A stretch of 18,171 bases of DNA from JBFMHD01 sp040752395 [NCBI: Candidatus Hydrogenedentota bacterium] (lineage in GTDB: Bacteria; JBFMHD01): contig JBFMHD010000025.1 in assembly GCA_040752395.1 (NCBI GenBank), forward strand, positions 1-18,171, in the 5' to 3' direction. Positions 1 to 17,035 of the stretch are shown here, in pieces. The translations under genes were made by a program, and so were the position numbers. How positions within the stretch are numbered: the stretch's first letter is position 1; each line of letters opens with the position of its first letter. The notes under the pieces were generated by a model. That model saw nothing but the letters and a program-made list of their open reading frames with translations, was not told the DNA's origin and searched no databases.

Positions 1-832
1 AGTTGTCTTTAATGCTGGTTTTCAAAATATTTAATGTAGTTTCCTGTTTTACCAGTGGGAAATCGCTTCCGAATATAAGTCGCTCACATCCTAAATTCTG
101 TAATGCTTTTAATATTGTTTTTGGGGGTTGAAAACTCGTATCAAGATATATATTCTTAAATTTCAGTGCCATCTCTATTACGATATTGTAATATTCAAGC
201 CCCATATGTACAAATATGAATTTCATTTTTGGAAACTTTTTTAATAGATTGATAAAGTTTTCAGGGTATGCAAATTTTTCAGCATCAATTTTAATAAACC
301 CTGCTCTGGCTGGACCTGTGTGAAAACAAACGGGTAGATTATATTTTGAAAATTCTTCTAAAATATTAGCTATTCTCTCGTCTTCTGGATGAATTTTCTG
401 GATGACAGGATGTATCTTTATTCCTTTGCACCCATTCTCAATATTAAATTTTAATCTGGCTAAATAATCAGTCTGTGAAAAATCAACTGATGCAAAGGGT
501 ATAAATTCTTGATATTTTTTTGACAATTCTATTACATACTCAGTTTTAACATTAGGTTCAATCGGTAAAAGTATCGCTTTGTTTACACCGTTCTTTTTAA
601 AAATTTCAATATAAGTTTCTGGTTTACATAATTGAACACGTTTGCAACTCTCCATATATGCTATATCACCAAGTAATCTACTGCTATTTTTTTTTGATCT
701 TGGATACGGTCTATTAAACTTTAAAAGCTCAAGTATTGAAACCAACCCAAACGGTATCTTATCTAAAGGATATTGTATTTGCGTACCTGTGTAGATATCA
801 CCAATATGTGTATGTGCATCAATTATATTCAT
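1..832 (-). CDS. Amidohydrolase_2 family (TIM-barrel metal-dependent hydrolase), 3' end outside the window
   Basis: The minus-strand frame is open from an ATG at 832 to the window edge (277 codons, no stop), so the C-terminus is missing. The N-terminus carries the metal-binding HxH motif (DAHTHIG, residues 5-11). Further down are HTGP, FVHMG and a late IFGSDFP that supplies the Asp expected near the end of the barrel. This set and order fit the Amidohydrolase_2 / COG2159 family, whose members are metal-dependent hydrolases or decarboxylases; the substrate cannot be read from sequence. The start overlaps the 3' end of the upstream epimerase-aminotransferase gene by 14 nt, so the two are almost certainly co-transcribed and translationally coupled. 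The location suggests a role in sugar or polysaccharide metabolism, but that is inference. Confidence 0.85.
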   Translation of the reverse strand, partial: MNIIDAHTHIGDIYTGTQIQYPLDKIPFGLVSILELLKFNRPYPRSKKNSSRLLGDIAYMESCKRVQLCKPETYIEIFKKNGVNKAILLPIEPNVKTEYVIELSKKYQEFIPFASVDFSQTDYLARLKFNIENGCKGIKIHPVIQKIHPEDERIANILEEFSKYNLPVCFHTGPARAGFIKIDAEKFAYPENFINLLKKFPKMKFIFVHMGLEYYNIVIEMALKFKNIYLDTSFQPPKTILKALQNLGCERLIFGSDFPLVKQETTLNILKTSIKDN

Positions 833-2984
833 CAGCGATGTCCTTAATTGATTCTATAATATAATCTATTTCTGCATCAGTAAGTCTTGGGTAAAATGGT
901 ATTGATATAGTTTCACTTCCTATTCGTTCACTAACAGGAAACATTCCTTTTTTGTACCCGTATTTTTCAGCATAATATTTCATAAGATGTATGGGTTTAT
1001 AATTGACAGCTACGCCTATGCCTTTATCCTGAAGTTTATATATGAACTCATCTCTGATATCAGCCCTGACCCATATTGTGAAAAGATGTCTTGAATGTTT
1101 TACATTGTGGAGTATCGCGGGAAGGCGTATATTTTTTATTTTTGATAAACCTTCATAATATCTATTAGCTATTCTTTCTCTTTTACTTAGAAGTTCCTCA
1201 ATCCTCGATAACTGTCCGATCAAAAGAGCAGCATCTACGTTTGACATATTCGCTTTGTATCCCAGTAATTCCATATCAAATTGTTTAAATCTACCTGAAT
1301 ATCTGGTTGCAGCATCAGCAGAAAGCCCGTGTAACCTCAGCTTCACCAGTGTATTAGCCAGTTCCTCATTATTGGTACCAATAGCGCCGCCCTCACCACT
1401 TGTAATATTCTTTGTAGCATAAAAACTAAAACAGGCTGCATCTGAAACCGCTCCTGGTCTTATATCATCCCGTACGCCTTCAACACAATGAGCACAATCT
1501 TCAATAAGATATAGTTTATGTTTTTTTGCTATTTGTGAAATTTTCTTCATATCACACATATGGCCATAAAGATGGACAGGAAGGATAGCTTTTGTTTTTT
1601 CTGTTATTGCATCCTCAATAAGATTAGCATCGATATTTCCTGTTTCTTCTTCAACATCGATAAATACAGGTTTTGCTCCGCAATGTTCGATAGCATTCGC
1701 AGTTGCTACAAATGACATCGGAGTAGTAATAACTTCATCGTCTTGAGTTATGCCCAAAGCTTTTAATACAAGAAACAAGGACTCTGTACAGCTCGTTGTC
1801 CCTATAACCCTTTTTACTCCAAGATATTCACTTAAATCAGTTTCAAACTTTTTTGTTATGTTTCCAGTAGTAAGAAAGATTGAATATAAAGTCTGTTGAA
1901 CATTTAATATATCTTTTTCGTCGATATTATGTTTATAAAATTCCACTGTTCTTTTTATAATATGTTTATCTTTTTCCTCGAGCATCGGGTTAAACTTTGT
2001 AAGATTGATATATCTTTCTGTAGTTACAGTCATCTCATCTTTATCACCTTCAAACTTTACCACACCTTTTGCTAAAGCATCACGTATCTTGATTATGGCT
2101 TCTGGCACATTATGAGCAGGCACAAAATCAAGCACCTTCTTTATTTTCTCAAAAGATACATTATAGGTTCTTATATCCTGGTCTTCAGGGACTTTAATCA
2201 ATTTAGCATCTGGTATTATATCATTTATCATATTTGCAACAGTAATGACTCTGAAATTCTGGTCATCACTCCCCACATTAAAAATCTCTCCAGCCACTTT
2301 TTCACGTTTGGAATTTATAATTTTTAGAAAAGCAGTTGCGGCATCTTCAACCTGCACAAGCGGTCTCCATTGTTCCCCACCACCGACCACAAAGATTTTC
2401 TTATCTTTAAATGCACGCGCAGTCATAATGTTTACAAGTAAATCAAACCTCATCCTTTTTGAAAGCCCATAAAATGTCCCGTTTCTTAAAACCGTTACAG
2501 CGAAATTTTTGTCACACATATTAAATAAGGCTTCTTCAACTATGAGTTTACACTTGGCATAAAGAGAGACAGGTTTACATTTGGAGTCTTCTTTTAAAAA
2601 TAAAGTATCACCAGAACCATACACACTGCAGGACGATGAGAATATCAATTGTTTCACCCCTGATTCTTTTGCGGCTTTTGCAAGGTTAATAGAGCCATCA
2701 CGATTAATAGCCAGTGTTAAATCAGGATTTAGCGCGCAGGACGGGTCGTTTGAAAGCCCGCTTACATCTATCAAAACATCAATATTGTTAAAAGTCTCCC
2801 TGGGTATCCATCGAATATCACACTTTAATAACTCAAAATTAGGGTTTGTTTTAAAACTATCAAGAGAAGCTTCACCAAAGAAACATCGATCCAGTACGCG
2901 AACAAAATGATTGTTCTCAAGTAACAATTTTACAAGCACTGTGCCAAGATAACCCGCACCACCTGCTATAAGTAGATTAGCCAT
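819..2984 (-). CDS. Fusion of NAD-dependent sugar epimerase/dehydratase (extended SDR) and DegT/DnrJ/EryC1 aminotransferase
   Basis: One 721-aa protein carries two complete enzymes. Residues 1 to about 325 form an extended short-chain dehydrogenase: the Rossmann motif GGAGYLG is at 8-14, an SSS stretch near 116-118 and the catalytic YxxxK (YAKCK) at 142-146. Residues from about 345 to 721 form a fold-type I DegT family aminotransferase with EDCAH near 495 and the PLP lysine in FYATKNITSGEGG (K525), so aminotransfer rather than dehydration is expected. Known members of these families act in sequence on nucleotide sugars, the SDR making or modifying a keto sugar and the DegT enzyme aminating it; the exact sugar is unknown. 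An in-frame TTG lies 24 nt upstream, but the ATG at 2984 has AGGAG seven bases before it and the Rossmann motif right after, so I chose it. It sits 44 nt after the WbqC gene and overlaps the amidohydrolase start. Confidence 0.93.
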   Translation of the reverse strand: MANLLIAGGAGYLGTVLVKLLLENNHFVRVLDRCFFGEASLDSFKTNPNFELLKCDIRWIPRETFNNIDVLIDVSGLSNDPSCALNPDLTLAINRDGSINLAKAAKESGVKQLIFSSSCSVYGSGDTLFLKEDSKCKPVSLYAKCKLIVEEALFNMCDKNFAVTVLRNGTFYGLSKRMRFDLLVNIMTARAFKDKKIFVVGGGEQWRPLVQVEDAATAFLKIINSKREKVAGEIFNVGSDDQNFRVITVANMINDIIPDAKLIKVPEDQDIRTYNVSFEKIKKVLDFVPAHNVPEAIIKIRDALAKGVVKFEGDKDEMTVTTERYINLTKFNPMLEEKDKHIIKRTVEFYKHNIDEKDILNVQQTLYSIFLTTGNITKKFETDLSEYLGVKRVIGTTSCTESLFLVLKALGITQDDEVITTPMSFVATANAIEHCGAKPVFIDVEEETGNIDANLIEDAITEKTKAILPVHLYGHMCDMKKISQIAKKHKLYLIEDCAHCVEGVRDDIRPGAVSDAACFSFYATKNITSGEGGAIGTNNEELANTLVKLRLHGLSADAATRYSGRFKQFDMELLGYKANMSNVDAALLIGQLSRIEELLSKRERIANRYYEGLSKIKNIRLPAILHNVKHSRHLFTIWVRADIRDEFIYKLQDKGIGVAVNYKPIHLMKYYAEKYGYKKGMFPVSERIGSETISIPFYPRLTDAEIDYIIESIKDIADEYN

Positions 2985-3001
2985 TGTAGTACTCCTATAA
3001 A

Positions 3002-3029
3002 GAAGCAAGAAGTGGGAAGTGAGAGGTAT
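3002..3029. repeat. Four degenerate heptamers between two operon genes
   Basis: On the plus strand four consecutive 7-mers of the GAAGCAA type can be read (gaagcaa, gaagtgg, gaagtga, gaggtat). They fill most of the 44-nt gap between the WbqC stop and the epimerase-aminotransferase start. The last unit touches the WbqC stop codon. A similar string (gaagtgagaggtgtcag) recurs near 13314-13330, so this is a dispersed repeat family rather than chance. Confidence 0.6.
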
Positions 3030-3751: not shown

Positions 3752-3845
3752 TTTATCAGGTCTTTTTTAAAAGTATCATTTTTAAGGAACTAAATTTTAT
3801 AAAAATAGCTTTTTTCATTCTCGTAATTCTTTAAAAACAAGCTTA
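3752..3845. repeat. ~94-bp direct repeat, copy A
   Basis: This copy matches 4791-4883 in the same orientation. The two share an identical 42-nt core (3774-3815 versus 4811-4852) and identical or near-identical edges ending in acaagctta. The core holds the palindrome ATTTTATAAAAT. The copy lies directly upstream of the WbqC gene on the minus strand. Copies A and B bracket the PIN-domain gene pair and a MITE-like element. Confidence 0.85.
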
Positions 3846-3901
3846 TTCTAAACTCTCACCAAATTTATCTGGCAATAGTTTCTATTTACTATAATAACAA
3901 T

Positions 3902-4007
3902 GTAATGCCTCAGTCTTCAGTGGAGTCTCTTTATCTTGCCTCTTGTATCTAATTCGTGCCGTTTCTTGCTTCTTGCTTCTTAATCCCACTTATAACAGAG
4001 GGATTAC
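3902..4007. mobile_element. MITE-like element 1 (106 bp) with terminal inverted repeats and 8-bp target duplication
   Basis: The left end reads GTAATGCCTCAGT. The reverse complement of the right end reads GTAATCCCTCTGT, matching at 11 of 13 positions. The element is flanked on both sides by the perfect octamer ATAACAAT (3894-3901 and 4008-4015), the signature of a transposition target duplication. The interior contains heptamer repeats of the CTTGCTT type. It has no coding capacity, so any movement would need a transposase supplied elsewhere. A 37-nt internal stretch (3908-3944) matches element 2 (14454-14490) at 33 positions. Confidence 0.8.
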
Positions 4008-4049
4008 ATAACAATATAGAGGTCTGGATTTAGCGTCGACGTTGTAAAC

Positions 4050-4790: not shown

Positions 4791-4883
4791 TTTATCAGTT
4801 TTTTTAAAGGTATCATTTTTAAGGAACTAAATTTTATAAAAATAGCTTTTTTAATGCCAATAGTTCTTTAAAAAACAAGCTTA
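4791..4883. repeat. ~94-bp direct repeat, copy B
   Basis: This copy is in the same orientation as 3752-3845, with an identical 42-nt core at 4811-4852. It contains an imperfect inverted repeat, TTAAGGAACTA facing TAGTTCTTTAA, that could fold with one G-U pair. It lies upstream of the PIN gene on the minus strand and directly downstream of the terminator of the preceding operon. Confidence 0.85.
4833..4860 (-). promoter_or_regulatory. Candidate sigma-70-type promoter for the PIN gene pair, inside repeat copy B
   Basis: Reading the minus strand, TTGGCA (-35, one mismatch from consensus) is followed by a 16-nt spacer and TATAAA (-10). It lies just after the terminator of the upstream operon and before the PIN gene, leaving a leader of roughly 110 nt. 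The -10 box falls in the part identical between the two repeats, but copy A lacks a recognisable -35 box at the same position. Confidence 0.5.
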
Positions 4884-4892
4884 AAGTTTTCA

Positions 4893-4920
4893 AAAACCCC
4901 TTTTTTTAAAAAGGGGGTTT
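4893..4920 (-). terminator. Intrinsic terminator overlapping the stop codon of the GNAT/radical-SAM gene
   Basis: The minus strand reads AAACCCCC, a T-run, an A-run, then GGGGTTTTTG. It folds into a C/G plus A/T stem with one bulged C, followed by a short T tract. The last codons of the upstream gene (K-P-P-F and the TAA) are encoded by the left arm and loop. This marks the end of the operon that starts at the phosphofructokinase gene. Because the sequence is nearly symmetrical it could also act in the other direction. Confidence 0.75.
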
Positions 4921-6399
4921 AAAAGAGACATCTTTATCCAGCGCATAAAAATAATTATAGTTCCACGACCGGTATTCAAGGTCAATACATCCTTTACACA
5001 TAGGTATCTCTTCTCTTCTACCCTGGATGTGTAATTTCCGCCAGGTATTAAAAAGCTCGGACTGCCATAACTCTTCTATACTATGTTCTTTAATATTTCC
5101 GACGCAGGAGGTATTGTAAATATCAGAAACGCATCCCCTGACATTGCCCAACGAATCTATTAATACTCTCTCCCACAAAAATGGGCAGGGTACGGTTGAG
5201 TGGAGGTATGTAGAATATTCTTTTTTTCGCTTGATAATGCCTTTGAAACTTAATAATTTTCTTATTAATACATCATCTACAATTTCCTCCCAGAATTTAA
5301 AAATATAGTCCAGTTCATTTTCATTTGCTTCCTGCTCTATTATGCTTACCATTATTTTAGTATTATAATTATTTTCATTTCGCAATCTAACAAGTTCTTT
5401 TATATTAAACAATACTTTTTCAAAATCCAGGCCGATGCGTATTTTTTCAAAAGTCTCTTTAGTAGCGGCATCTACGCTTACTTCGATACTCCTGATCCGT
5501 CTTTTAAGCAGTCGTTCTGACTTATCAGGTGTTAATAAACTGCCGTTAGTGGTTAGGGCAACATTTTTATCTTGTTTTACATCAAGCAAGTATTCTATCA
5601 TTTCAATCGCTTCAGGATGAGTTAATACTTCGCCGCAGGATGAGACACGAATCAAATTATGGTGATATCCCGCACATTCTTCTGCAACCTTTTTTAATAT
5701 CTCCCAGCTCATAAATGCATCCCTGCCTTTTATACTTGCGGTAAAATTTGTAGCAGCATTAGGGCAATGGATACATCGGGAATTACAAATAAACGAGAGA
5801 CCACAAACAACCATCTGCGGAAACGTTTTAGCTAGCGGAAATCTGAACCCGAAACTCTCAGGTATATGCGGGGATAATACCATATATATCCGTTCAACCT
5901 CATCATCACAAAAAAAATTATAATCTTCTTTTCTGCATTCAACAAATCCGAGTTTTTTATAAGTTCTATAAGCAGCTATATTTTCTTTAAGCATTTTTAT
6001 CCGAATTTTAATACAGGGGTGTATCTCCTGCCAGATATATTTTATAGTAAGCCTTAATGCCTCGGTCCCATAACCCTTTGCCCTATGCTCAGGATACCCG
6101 ATAAAAATACCTATCTCTGCTTCCAGTCTATTATAATCTATCCCAAAAATATTAACGTTTCCTATATATTGTGGTTCCTGTTTATTACCAAGCATAATTT
6201 TAAAAACTCTTCTTGCTGGATCATTTCTGACTTTATTAAACCACATTAGCTGTTTTTCAAGAGTAAGCTCCTCGTTTGGTCGTTCAATCAATCTTCGTAA
6301 CTCATTATCTTTCATCCATTGTAAGTTTATTTCGAGGTCATTTTCTGTAAGTTCGGCTAAATTAATATTTTCGCCCTTCATTATGTATTTATCTTCCAT
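4906..6399 (-). CDS. GNAT acetyltransferase fused to a radical SAM/SPASM domain
   Basis: This 497-aa protein has two parts. Residues 1 to about 175 are a GNAT N-acetyltransferase of the RimJ/RimL or PseH type, with the acetyl-CoA loop HRAKGYGTEA at 105-114 and the late AAYRTYKKLGF at 142-152. From about 195 onward is a radical SAM domain with CNSRCIHC (C205, C209, C212) for the 4Fe-4S cluster. The C-terminal SPASM/twitch region has further cysteines (C405, C423, C432, C468, C471) for auxiliary clusters. The fusion suggests that one substrate, perhaps an amino sugar or its carrier, is both acetylated and modified by radical chemistry; this is inference. The start is uncertain: the ATG at 6399 overlaps the upstream gene by 19 nt, while the ATG at 6381 forms a TAATG overlap and gives the more typical GNAT N-terminus MKGENINLAEL. 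It is the last gene of the operon. Confidence 0.9.
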   Translation of the reverse strand: MEDKYIMKGENINLAELTENDLEINLQWMKDNELRRLIERPNEELTLEKQLMWFNKVRNDPARRVFKIMLGNKQEPQYIGNVNIFGIDYNRLEAEIGIFIGYPEHRAKGYGTEALRLTIKYIWQEIHPCIKIRIKMLKENIAAYRTYKKLGFVECRKEDYNFFCDDEVERIYMVLSPHIPESFGFRFPLAKTFPQMVVCGLSFICNSRCIHCPNAATNFTASIKGRDAFMSWEILKKVAEECAGYHHNLIRVSSCGEVLTHPEAIEMIEYLLDVKQDKNVALTTNGSLLTPDKSERLLKRRIRSIEVSVDAATKETFEKIRIGLDFEKVLFNIKELVRLRNENNYNTKIMVSIIEQEANENELDYIFKFWEEIVDDVLIRKLLSFKGIIKRKKEYSTYLHSTVPCPFLWERVLIDSLGNVRGCVSDIYNTSCVGNIKEHSIEELWQSELFNTWRKLHIQGRREEIPMCKGCIDLEYRSWNYNYFYALDKDVSFKPPF

Positions 6400-13204: not shown

Positions 13205-13268
13205 TTCTTATTTCCTCTCTCTATCCCCACTCCTCTGAAAAACATTGTAACTCTAATGATATCAAGTA

Positions 13269-13455
13269 GAAGCAAGAGGCAAGAAGCAAGAAGCAAGAAG
13301 CAAGATAACGGAAGAAGTGAGAGGTGTCAGGACAGGCTACAGGCTACGGACTACAGCCGGCTGGAGACAAAAGCCAAAAGCCAGCTGAAAAGTCTTGAGT
13401 CTTGAGTCTCGAGTCCTGTTTTGACTCACGACTTGCGACTTGTGACTCACGACTC
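13269..13455. repeat. Heptamer-phased repeat array (about 27 units of 7 nt)
   Basis: Reading from 13269 in steps of seven, with no phase slip, gives runs of related units. There are five of the GAAGCAA type, then ACAGGCT twice followed by ACGGACT and ACAGCCG. Next come ACAAAAG and CCAAAAG, then TTGAGTC twice and TCGAGTC, then GACTCAC, GACTTGC, GACTTGT, GACTCAC and a partial GACTC. A few linking heptamers join the families. The array resembles the heptanucleotide short tandem repeats known from cyanobacterial genomes, but it strings several different families in one register. Confidence 0.85.
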
Positions 13456-13495
13456 TTTTCATATCATCTTTAGTTTTTCATCCTTTGTGCCTTTG

Positions 13496-13529
13496 CCTGC
13501 CTGCCGCGGCGGAGCGCGGCGCAGGCAGG
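13496..13529. repeat. GC-rich inverted repeat (hairpin)
   Basis: CCTGCCTGC at the left pairs with GCAGGCAGG at the right. An inner CGCG/CGCG extension continues the stem past a 2-nt bulge around a 6-nt loop. Its GC content stands out sharply from the AT-rich surroundings. It lies downstream of the TadG-like gene (minus strand) but has no U tract, so a simple terminator is unlikely; it looks like a dispersed palindromic element. Confidence 0.7.
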
Positions 13530-13580
13530 TGCCTCTGTACCTTTGAAAGTAAAAAGTAAGAAGTATCGAAAGGACAAACT

Positions 13581-14390
13581 TTATCTTACTGTAATTTTTT
13601 TCTCGCCAGTAGCAAAAAGACCATAATACTCAGCTGGTACATTATCTTTTACTGCTTCATAAAGAAAATGTTCTGCAAAACCACCAATAAGGTCATCACC
13701 CACAATATCAGTCACCATAAACTCGCAAAACCCTGATATAATGTTAGAATCCTTCTTTAAGACGCAGGCAAAAACAGACGGCACACCACCTTGATTGTAA
13801 TTAATTACCTGTTTTATGTCCTGATTAATACTTGAGAATTTTATTTTATCACCAGCTTTAAATTTATCTACCCCGGTTTTATCAATAAAGAAATATTGTA
13901 TATAATCTTCTCCTGGAGCCGATTTGAAACTCCCTGCTTTCCTTATAAGAAACTGAGTCTTGTATTCTATCCCTGTATTCAATTCAATAGCTAATTTAAT
14001 TCTGTTTGCATCCATCACCCCGACTATACCAGCGGACTCGGGTATAACCGTAACCACCTTTGTTGTAGTTTGATCAGTGGAAGCTTTACCTATTAATCTC
14101 ATCATATAAAGAGGTAATTTTTTAGCTGCTTTTACTGTTAGTATACAATTTCTCTGAGATACTACTGGAGTCTGATCTTTAAAAATTATATTCTTCTGTT
14201 TTGCTTTTGAATTTAAATAATCTATAGCCTTTTGAGGTTCATAAGGAAGATATTGACCTGCTTCCTTGAGAAGTAATTCTATCTCTTTCTGCAATGCTCG
14301 TCGGCCCTTAATACTTCTGTATACATCAGCCACCATACCAACAGCTATTAAAAACGCGAGTACACTACCAATTAGTATCAATCTTTTCAT
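13581..14390 (-). CDS. Single-TM protein resembling a divergent TadG-like pilus-assembly protein
   Basis: This 269-aa protein has an N-terminal membrane segment (about residues 4-22) followed by DVYRSIKGRRALQKEIELLL. The pattern parallels the TadE/TadG N-terminus, where a membrane helix is followed by an Asp-Val, an RR(x)LQ and an A-rich helix. The rest also follows the TadG layout: an ordered domain with TVKAAKKLPLYMMRLIG near 84-100 (compare the V-x-V-x-P-x-x-F-x-R-x-x-G pattern). This precedes a variable region ending in GGFAEHFLYE near 237-246, like the GFAxFFL close of such proteins. If correct it is anchored in the inner membrane with its bulk outside. No other tad gene is present, and this reading is pattern-based, so it may instead be an unrelated secreted protein. 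Its promoter lies only 8 nt upstream and no ribosome-binding site is seen. Confidence 0.7.
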   Translation of the reverse strand: MKRLILIGSVLAFLIAVGMVADVYRSIKGRRALQKEIELLLKEAGQYLPYEPQKAIDYLNSKAKQKNIIFKDQTPVVSQRNCILTVKAAKKLPLYMMRLIGKASTDQTTTKVVTVIPESAGIVGVMDANRIKLAIELNTGIEYKTQFLIRKAGSFKSAPGEDYIQYFFIDKTGVDKFKAGDKIKFSSINQDIKQVINYNQGGVPSVFACVLKKDSNIISGFCEFMVTDIVGDDLIGGFAEHFLYEAVKDNVPAEYYGLFATGEKKITVR

Positions 14391-14398
14391 ATTGCAAT

Positions 14399-14427
14399 TT
14401 TATAGTAAAAAATATAATTATAGTCAA
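14399..14427 (-). promoter_or_regulatory. Strong consensus promoter giving a probably leaderless mRNA
   Basis: The minus strand reads TTGACT (-35), an ideal 17-nt spacer, then TATAAA (-10). Only eight bases (ATTGCAAT) separate the -10 box from the ATG at 14390. Transcription would therefore begin within about two bases of the start codon, which agrees with the absence of any Shine-Dalgarno sequence. Confidence 0.75.
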
Positions 14428-14447
14428 GAAAAATTTTCTGATACTTC

Positions 14448-14526
14448 GTATTCCCTCAGTTTTCGGTGGAGTTTCTTTATCTTGCTTCTTAAGTAAATTC
14501 TACAGCACCAATAACTGACGGATTAC
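14448..14526. mobile_element. MITE-like element 2 (79 bp) with terminal inverted repeats and 8-bp target duplication
   Basis: The left end is GTATTCCCTCAGTT. The reverse complement of the right end is GTAATCCGTCAGTT, matching at 12 of 14 positions. The octamer GATACTTC flanks it exactly on both sides (14440-14447 and 14527-14534). It shares ends and a 37-nt interior block with element 1 (33 of 37 positions) but has fewer internal heptamers, which accounts for much of its shorter length. It lies between the divergent TadG-like and LipA-like genes, directly in the upstream region of the latter. Confidence 0.82.
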
Positions 14527-14556
14527 GATACTTCTTACTTTTGCCAGTGAGAAAAG

Positions 14557-15438
14557 ATGAAACCTGATTATTTGAAGATAAAACTGAGACCTCCTAATAA
14601 AAATAGAAAACATATCGAGATGCTTTTAAAAAAATACAATCTTAGAACAATCTGTGATTATGCATTATGCCCGAATAAATGTGAATGTTATAATAACTCT
14701 GAGCTAACGTTTCTTATTCTGGGTCCTTACTGCTCTCGTAAATGTGGATTCTGTAGGATCAGCACTATCGATTCTTCACCAGATCTCGATTATAGTGAAC
14801 CGTATAATATTTTAAAAATCGCAAAGATACTTAAATTAAAATACGTTGTAATAACCTCAACAACAAGGGATGATTTACCATTTTATGGCGCCTCACATTT
14901 TGCAGAGATAACCACACTTCTTAAAAATAACAATATCCCTGTCGAGTTACTTATACCGGATTTCAATGGTGATAATAAATGTTATGAAATAATTTATAAT
15001 AGTAAACCTGATGTTATCTCACATAATATTGAGACTGTACCTGCTCTCTATAACAAATTCAGGCAAGATTTCTCTTTTGATAGAAGTATCTCGCTTCTTA
15101 AGTGGTTCAGAGAAAAAGATAAAGATGTCATTCTCAAGACCTCAATACTTGTTGGGATTGGTGAAACTATCAATGATTTAACAAAAGTTTTTACCATCCT
15201 CTATAATTATCAAATAAATATTTTAATTATAGGTCAGTATCTCCAGCCAACAAAAAATAATCCTTTAGTTGTAAAATATTATTCTCTTGATGAATTTAAA
15301 CTTCTTGAGAATCTTGCTTTAAGATGTGGTATCCCTGTGGTTGTATCATCGCCGTTTGCTCGAAGCTCGTATAAAGCTTCCAGCATTAAATCAAAAGTTG
15401 TTATCGAATCTGCTTGTGGAGAGTCTGTACAAATATAA
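14557..15438 (+). CDS. lipA: Lipoyl synthase-like radical SAM protein
   Basis: This 293-aa protein keeps the three LipA signatures. The auxiliary cluster motif C-x4-C-x5-C lies in CDYALCPNKCEC (C33, C38, C44), the radical SAM motif in CSRKCGFC (C59, C63, C66), and the C-terminal RSSY at 269-272 supplies the Ser ligand of the auxiliary cluster. Internal LipA motifs VVITSTTRDDLP, HNIETVPALY, ILVGIGET and IGQYLQPT are also present. LipA inserts two sulfurs into protein-bound octanoate to make lipoyl groups. The sequence is divergent: there is an extra Cys (C42) inside the auxiliary motif, and the usual D-G-G after DDLP is replaced. The start at 14557 follows GTGAGAAAAG. It is the only complete plus-strand gene, carries a MITE-like element upstream, and its last 48 nt overlap the convergent membrane protein gene. 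No lipB, lplA or lipoylated subunit gene is nearby. Confidence 0.85.
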   Translation: MKPDYLKIKLRPPNKNRKHIEMLLKKYNLRTICDYALCPNKCECYNNSELTFLILGPYCSRKCGFCRISTIDSSPDLDYSEPYNILKIAKILKLKYVVITSTTRDDLPFYGASHFAEITTLLKNNNIPVELLIPDFNGDNKCYEIIYNSKPDVISHNIETVPALYNKFRQDFSFDRSISLLKWFREKDKDVILKTSILVGIGETINDLTKVFTILYNYQINILIIGQYLQPTKNNPLVVKYYSLDEFKLLENLALRCGIPVVVSSPFARSSYKASSIKSKVVIESACGESVQI

Positions 15439-16923: not shown

Positions 16924-16964
16924 AGTTTAACCCCTTTCATCTTGCTTCTTGCTTCTTGATATCC

Positions 16965-17035
16965 CCTCAGTCTACTACGGGTCTAAAGACCCTCACTACT
17001 CTGTGCCTCTTTCTTTATCTTGCTTCTTGCTTCTT
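16965..17035. repeat. Partial or rearranged relative of the MITE-like elements, with heptamers
   Basis: CCTCAGTCT at the left and TCTTTATCTTGCTTCTTGC at the right match the left half of elements 1 and 2. The middle is replaced by a palindrome GGGTCTAAAGACCC (16979-16992), and no right terminal repeat or target duplication is visible. A neighbouring heptamer run of the CTTGCTT type lies at 16938-16958. The element supplies the final codons and stop of the minus-strand gene at 16996. Confidence 0.6.

What the first reader, a model, noticed from the sequence alone, without database searches (positions are those of the whole stretch)
14440..14534. Second member of the same MITE-like family, with a different 8-bp target duplication, in the lipA-like upstream region
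The 79-bp element has 12/14 matching terminal repeats and exact GATACTTC octamers on both sides. Two independent insertions with different, perfect 8-bp duplications establish a mobile family. The two copies differ in the number of internal heptamers, so the heptamer tract may expand or contract after insertion.
Basis: seen in the sequence. Interest (0 to 1): 0.75.

Follow-up and report, generated by a model that had tools for sequence, protein, structure and literature searches.

The report
Tiny IS66-type mobile element near lipA
A 79-base mobile DNA element with no gene of its own, probably moved by an IS66-type transposase made elsewhere in the cell, has inserted just in front of a lipoic-acid gene; it is one of two related copies in this stretch and is an ordinary kind of bacterial mini-transposon with an unusual filling of seven-base repeats.

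Summary
At 14448-14526 lies a 79-bp element with imperfect terminal inverted repeats (12/14) between exact copies of GATACTTC; a 106-bp relative lies at 3902-4007 between copies of ATAACAAT. All four ends are one change from GTAATCCCTCAGT. They are too short to encode a transposase: MITEs. A likely mover is added: ends starting GTA(A), TCAG at positions 9-12 (three of four ends) and an exact 8-bp duplication resemble single-gene IS66 (ISBst12-group) elements. 17 of 42 IS66 loci showed inverted ends with 8-bp duplications, 15 of the 17 starting GTA; none of 7 such end pairs at 60 IS256/ISL3 control loci did. Against: positions 5-6 differ from IS66, an IS66 end profile ranks these ends only 20th-99th in the window, and the host genome is not held, so no partner was sought. 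The heptamer claim is weaker: TTGCTTC arrays also lie outside the elements, beside other heptamer arrays, and in four viral contigs; copy 1's extra tract is not a plain lengthening of the shared one. Sister genomes could not be compared. New member of a known kind, modest interest.

The parts
14440..14447 (.). left target-site duplication GATACTTC
   Evidence: exact match to 14527-14534
14448..14526 (+). MITE copy 2, 79 bp, no transposase gene
   Evidence: TIR 12/14, exact 8-bp flanking duplication, homologous to copy 1
14448..14469 (+). left terminal inverted repeat of copy 2 (GTATTCCCTCAGT...)
   Evidence: 17 of 22 positions match the right end
14505..14526 (-). right terminal inverted repeat of copy 2 (GTAATCCGTCAGT... 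on the minus strand)
14482..14490 (+). single TTGCTTC heptamer plus TT inside copy 2
   Evidence: sequence; same place as the shared tract of copy 1
14527..14534 (.). right target-site duplication GATACTTC
3894..3901 (.). left target-site duplication ATAACAAT of copy 1
3902..4007 (+). MITE copy 1, 106 bp
   Evidence: TIR 11/14, exact 8-bp duplication, left 43 bp 86% identical to copy 2
3963..3981 (+). second heptamer tract (2.7 units of TTCTTGC) present only in copy 1
   Evidence: TRF, alignment
4008..4015 (.). right target-site duplication ATAACAAT of copy 1
14557..15438 (+). lipoyl synthase-type radical SAM gene; 22 bp lie between the right duplication and its ATG
   Evidence: NCBIfam NF004019 lipoyl synthase 291.8 bits over a cut-off of 203, TIGR00510 lipA 245.1 bits below its cut-off of 310.25; Pfam Radical_SAM; distance
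13581..14390 (-). divergent ORF without a family match; the element lies in the spacer between its start and lipA
   Evidence: ORF list; no Pfam or NCBIfam match

Best explanation
The feature is a non-autonomous miniature transposon (MITE). It carries only the two ends that a transposase recognises and a body of about 35 bp that includes one heptamer unit. It was probably inserted by a transposase of the single-gene IS66 type (ISBst12 group) supplied in trans: the enzyme binds the GTAATCCCTCAGT-like ends, joins them to an 8-bp staggered cut, and repair of the gaps gives the 8-bp duplication. Shown here: the two copies, their ends, their exact duplications, the lack of room for a transposase gene. 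Inferred: the transposase type (from end anatomy only), its action in trans, the steps of the reaction (established for DDE transposases in general), and that the insertion may change the lipA leader. The heptamers in the body are most likely ordinary sequence of this genome's spacers, which are rich in heptamer arrays, carried along by the element.
For: Two copies with exact and different 8-bp duplications; only two such arrangements in the window against a mean of 0.017 in 60 resampled windows; alignment score above all of 2000 shuffles. All four ends are one change from GTAATCCCTCAGT, each at a different position. IS66 loci (PF03050) from genomes of the phylum of G001 and from plasmids: 17 of 42 show inverted ends (at least 11/14) with an exact 8-bp duplication; 15 of the 17 start GTA at both ends and 9 of the 17 have TCAG at positions 9-12 of at least one end (loci; counts). 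Controls: 2 of 30 IS256-type and 5 of 30 ISL3 loci show such ends, none of the seven starts GTA. Published: IS66 ends begin GTAAGCG with 8-bp repeats (PMC11946415, passages); ISDge4 of the ISBst12 group moved in the laboratory with imperfect ends GTGACTACTCAGCA / GTAACTGCTCAGCA and an 8-base repeat (PMC12898284, passages). Self-match at a lag of 7 is raised in non-coding DNA of the window (0.360 against 0.280 in coding).
Against: No transposase with these ends is known: the host genome is not held. Positions 5-6 are TC in three window ends and TG in one, while position 5 is C in 30 of 32 and position 6 is T in 25 of 32 compared IS66 ends; the published GTAAGCG start also parts after GTAA. A profile of those 32 ends ranks the four MITE ends only 20th, 24th, 54th and 99th of 36,318 13-mers of the window. 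One window end lacks TCAG (TCTG) and one starts GTAT. 25 of 42 IS66 loci gave no ends, and one of the 17 (L049) is probably a chance pair. One ISL3 control (L102) matches the MITE consensus at 7 of 13, as well as three of the IS66 elements and better than two. IS6 and IS1595, which also make 8-bp duplications (recalled), were not run as controls. A search for short elements with IS66 ends in 5 genomes and 11 plasmid records found 0 of 16.
Confidence: 0.7

Rival explanations
1. A MITE moved by a transposase that is not IS66, from another family that makes 8-bp duplications or from an undescribed one.
For: Ends differ from compared IS66 ends at positions 5-6 and score only moderately on their profile. 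No autonomous partner is known. IS6 and IS1595 were not tested.
Against: GTA start, TCAG at 9-12 in the same register and 8-bp duplications agree with IS66; none of the 7 end pairs recovered from IS256 and ISL3 loci starts GTA.
Confidence: 0.2
2. Not transposition but a heptamer-based repeat that spread by slippage or recombination, with inverted ends and duplications by chance or by a transposase-independent route.
For: TTGCTTC arrays occur at other places in the window without such ends and duplications, and the body shares the stretch before the tract, CTTTATC, with the array at 17018-17035.
Against: Exact 8-bp duplications at two sites around homologous inverted ends; the arrangement occurred at a mean of 0.017 per resampled window.
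Confidence: 0.03
3. A hairpin-forming regulatory RNA element of the lipA leader kept for its structure.
For: As RNA, 14427-14580 folds better than shuffles (-36.3 kcal/mol, z -3.12; 1 of 200 shuffles as good). Copy 2 as DNA folds somewhat better than shuffles (z -1.85; 10 of 200 as good).
Against: Any inverted repeat folds so. Copy 1 lies at an unrelated place and as DNA folds no better than shuffles (z -0.27). Each of the four changes from the consensus in the outer 13 bases breaks a pair and none is compensated (sequences).
Confidence: 0.05

Closest known systems
IS66 family, ISBst12 group (for example ISDge4)
   Same: 8-bp target duplication, imperfect inverted ends, GTA(A) start and TCAG at positions 9-12 (PMC12898284, passages)
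   Different: the window elements are 79 and 106 bp without a transposase; positions 5-6 of the ends differ
BrickBuilt MITE of Porphyromonas gingivalis (PMC4596501, abstract and passages seen)
   Same: a bacterial MITE with tandem repeats inside it
   Different: 23-nt repeats, ends most like IS5-family ISPg1/ISPg9, 19 copies, duplications of differing length; here 1 to about 4 heptamers and IS66-like ends with 8-bp duplications
Intergenic heptanucleotide repeats: TAACTGA of Beggiatoaceae (PMC4679880), GGGAATC of Xanthomonas (PMC4692102); passages seen
   Same: heptamer arrays mainly in intergenic DNA
   Different: described as arrays on their own; heptamers inside a MITE were not in the passages I saw. 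A Thiomargarita paper with both MITEs and heptamers (PMC4853749, passages) found no TAACTGA in its repeat consensus sequences
MITEPsy1 and MITEPsy2 of Pseudomonas syringae (PMC3189936, passages seen)
   Same: short non-autonomous elements with inverted ends; MITEPsy1 was caught moving
   Different: listed as IS5 with a question mark, and with ends like a Tn3-family element; duplications of 4 nt and unknown

Membership tests
Bacterial MITE | short element with terminal inverted repeats | tested here: met
   79 and 106 bp; 12/14 and 11/14
Bacterial MITE | target-site duplication | tested here: met
   exact GATACTTC and ATAACAAT
Bacterial MITE | no transposase gene | tested here: met
   elements of 79 and 106 bp have no room for one
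Bacterial MITE | several copies in the genome | tested here: inconclusive
   two copies in 18 kb; genome not held
Bacterial MITE | autonomous partner with the same ends | not testable with these tools
   no genome held for the window
IS66/ISBst12-derived element | 8-bp target duplication | tested here: met
   IS66 yardstick
IS66/ISBst12-derived element | ends start GTA(A) | tested here: met
   three of four ends GTAA, one GTAT; 15 of 17 IS66 end pairs start GTA
IS66/ISBst12-derived element | ends follow GTAACT..TCAG closely | tested here: inconclusive
   TCAG at 9-12 in three of four ends, positions 5-6 differ; profile ranks 20-99 of 36,318
IS66/ISBst12-derived element | moved by an IS66 transposase | not tested
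   needs the host genome or a transposition assay

The most novel reading that the evidence does not exclude
The MITE is a carrier for heptamer repeats: transposition sows a single TTGCTTC unit with its CTTTATC lead into new intergenic sites, where slippage can grow it into an array, and the TTGCTTC arrays without ends at 13268-13305, 16940-16958 and 17018-17035 are grown remains of decayed copies. That would explain how one heptamer comes to lie in many spacers of a genome.
Probability: 0.08. Interest if true: 0.6.

Novelty: new member of a known kind. Interest (0 to 1): 0.32.

Why it matters
In the listings of my paper searches (20 of 95 papers listed; 0 papers; 25 of 342; 15 of 438) I saw no title or abstract start that describes a MITE with IS66 ends, and the prokaryotic MITE review PMC10969869 does not hold the word IS66 in its main text; so an IS66-type MITE may widen the list of transposases known to feed such elements. 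Why heptamer repeats are so common in bacterial spacers is little studied (PMC4692102, passages); an element that carries the unit makes one route testable. Otherwise the effect is local: an insertion 22 bp before a lipoic-acid gene that may alter its leader.

Tried and rejected
Host and sister genomes: own-genome search not possible. The one genome-contig scan, spent on the LipA protein, returned 1 relative among 46 pattern matches, a 36% identical LipA of an Anaerolineales MAG (L001), which is no close relative; viral contigs with the same protein gave 0 relatives among 21. Phosphofructokinase of the window against plasmids (84 records, all under 60% identity) and against solved structures (29 sequences) did not place the host. 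Hence no ortholog or empty-site test.

Other copies: element patterns in viral contigs gave 0 or one match (L002) with no partner end seen in the 700 bases that I read around it, taken as chance. Plasmids and phages by blastn gave no match for either element. Short elements with IS66 ends: 0 of 16 genomes or records. An IS66 transposase (L009) in viral contigs: 0 relatives. PF03050 in G001 itself: 0 of 1. The 729-aa sugar-enzyme protein in 21 genomes (18 of 21 with a match) was of no use here.

Third copy at 16959-17035: the end-like ATATCCCCTCAGT matches the consensus at 10 of 13, a level reached 9 times in the window and 4.4 times on average (maximum 8) in 20 resampled windows, and the local match of the left half is mostly the heptamer tract itself. 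Not counted as a copy.

Heptamers as a mark of the family: rejected. A 22-base heptamer pattern is in 0 of 400 genomes of the phylum of G001; a 25-base one is in four viral contigs, whose fetched stretches have G+C of 0.36 to 0.66 and no match to a MITE-end pattern; with TTATC in front of two units: 0.

Promoter or terminator in 14380-14620: none by the consensus scan. tRNA: 0. Rfam at gathering score: 0. Papers quoting the heptamer array in letters: 0.

End search at IS66 loci was run with three settings; the counts given are those, the widest one. One search, with TIRs and duplication scored together on 22 loci, put exact 8-base duplications first in 12 of 22.

Full report
Observation. Window 14448-14526 is 79 bp, its first and last 14 bases match as inverted repeats at 12 positions, and GATACTTC stands on both sides. 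No other arrangement of this type lies in the window, and 60 Markov-resampled windows gave a mean of 0.017, maximum 1 (criteria set after seeing the elements). The two elements align with a score of 93.9; 2000 shuffles gave mean 31.3, sd 5.8, maximum 52. With the outer 22 bases of each side taken off, 3 of 2000 shuffles reach the observed score of the bodies.

Ends. The four ends are GTAATGCCTCAGT, GTAATCCCTCTGT, GTATTCCCTCAGT and GTAATCCGTCAGT; each is one change from GTAATCCCTCAGT, each at a different position, and the similarity runs on to about base 22 (15 to 18 of 22 between any two). At 12 or more of 13 positions the consensus matches these four places and no other in the window.

What could move it. 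Ends in GTAA and 8-bp duplications suggested IS66 from memory; I tested this. The IS66 transposase family PF03050 was searched in 101 genomes of the phylum of G001 (Chloroflexota, judging by the title of L001, which lies in G001); 19 of 101 hold it. Thirty loci from that search (of 47 places listed) and 12 from plasmids (of 40 hits listed, 395 records) were scanned for inverted ends with an exact 8- or 9-bp duplication: 17 of 42 have them, all with 8 bp; 15 of 17 start GTA at both ends, one starts GTT, one (L049) looks like chance. A frequent end is GTAACT, two variable bases, TCAG. Nine of 17 have TCAG at positions 9-12 of at least one end, the same register as in three of the four window ends. 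The same scan at 30 IS256-type loci found 2 and at 30 ISL3 loci found 5, none starting GTA. The best match to the MITE consensus over 13 positions is 6 to 9 in the 16 IS66 elements other than L049 and 4 to 7 in the controls, so the difference is clear for the start and the register, less so for the plain count. Some of the 42 loci come from the same contig, and 25 of 42 gave nothing, which broken elements and contig ends could explain (not tested). In print, IS66 ends begin GTAAGCG with 8-bp repeats (PMC11946415, passages; ISPpa5a and ISPpa7 in PMC3281130 also have 8-bp repeats, passages), and ISDge4 of the ISBst12 group moved in Deinococcus geothermalis with ends GTGACTACTCAGCA and GTAACTGCTCAGCA and the repeat CCTCGATG (PMC12898284, passages).

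What speaks against IS66. Position 5 is C in 30 of 32 IS66 ends and T in all four window ends; position 6 is T in 25 of 32 and C or G in the window. A profile of the 32 ends (16 elements, L049 left out) ranks the window ends 20th, 24th, 54th and 99th of 36,318 13-mers. The profile alone would therefore not find them; the argument rests on the joint anatomy of end start, TCAG register and duplication length. IS6 and IS1595 were not run as controls. No short element with GTAACT..TCAG ends was found in 16 genomes or records.

Heptamers. Copy 2 holds one TTGCTTC unit and two bases; copy 1 has TTGCCTC at the same place and 2.7 further units at 3963-3981. The length difference is 27 bp, not a multiple of 7, and the alignment places an extra block of about 25 bp in copy 1 downstream of the shared tract. 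Expansion after insertion is possible but not shown. TTGCTTC arrays also lie at 13268-13305 (minus strand), 16940-16958 and 17018-17035, without such ends and duplications. The spacer 13205-13580 alone has TRF arrays of six different heptamers at a low score limit of 30. Leaving out the first 818 bases and counting 14 ORFs as coding, the self-match at a lag of 7 is 0.360 in non-coding and 0.280 in coding DNA, the largest non-coding value of lags 3-12; runs of 8 or more matches at that lag are 6 non-coding and 1 coding. TTGCTTC arrays of at least 25 bases turn up in four viral contigs, whose fetched stretches have G+C from 0.36 to 0.66, and a 22-base one in 0 of 400 genomes of the phylum of G001. 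Heptamer arrays are known from other bacteria (PMC4679880, PMC4692102; passages), where polymerase slippage has been proposed. So the heptamer is most simply a piece of local spacer sequence that the element carries.

Place and effect. 22 bp lie between the right duplication and the ATG of a lipoyl synthase-type gene (NCBIfam lipoyl synthase NF004019 over its cut-off, TIGR00510 below it), in the spacer to a divergent ORF without a family match. The joined flanks give a plain single-GATACTTC sequence. No promoter or terminator of the scanned types was found. As RNA the stretch folds into a long hairpin, as any inverted repeat would; I give it no function.

Limits. No genome is held for the window, the host is unknown, the orthologous site could not be compared, and copy number beyond two is unknown.

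Comparison. This is a bacterial MITE by size, ends, duplication and lack of a gene. A MITE with tandem repeats inside it has been described, BrickBuilt (PMC4596501, abstract and passages). A MITE with IS66 ends was not among the titles and abstract starts that my searches listed (listings capped at 15 to 25 papers), and the review PMC10969869 does not mention IS66; most subscription journals are outside that library.

Noticed in passing
window 13205-13580: One spacer holds tandem arrays of six different heptamers (AGAAGCA, ACAGGCT, CAAAAGC, AGTCTTG, GACTCAC, AAAGTAA, score limit 30) and, by eye, a G+C-rich inverted repeat near 13496-13529; period-7 self-match is raised in non-coding DNA of the window.
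   Followed up: partly
window 3763-3837 and 4800-4874: A 75-bp direct repeat, 91% identical, flanks a segment with MITE copy 1, a 77-aa ORF and a PIN-domain ORF, as if the ORF pair were a cassette; the repeats do not fold clearly better than shuffles and PADLOC has no match for the two ORFs.
   Followed up: partly
L119 1221-1273, L120 11752-11776, L121 913-993, L122 113-137: TTGCTTC heptamer arrays in four viral contigs of differing base composition; the same heptamer may arise or spread repeatedly. Their gene context and relatedness were not examined.
   Followed up: partly
window 16959-17000: Between two TTGCTTC arrays lies GGGTCT-AA-AGACCC, a 6-bp inverted repeat, beside a weak end-like sequence.
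   Followed up: no
window 819-3008 and 4906-6399: Two gene fusions: sugar epimerase with DegT-type aminotransferase (729 aa), and GNAT acetyltransferase with radical SAM/SPASM (497 aa), among glycosyltransferase genes.
   Followed up: no
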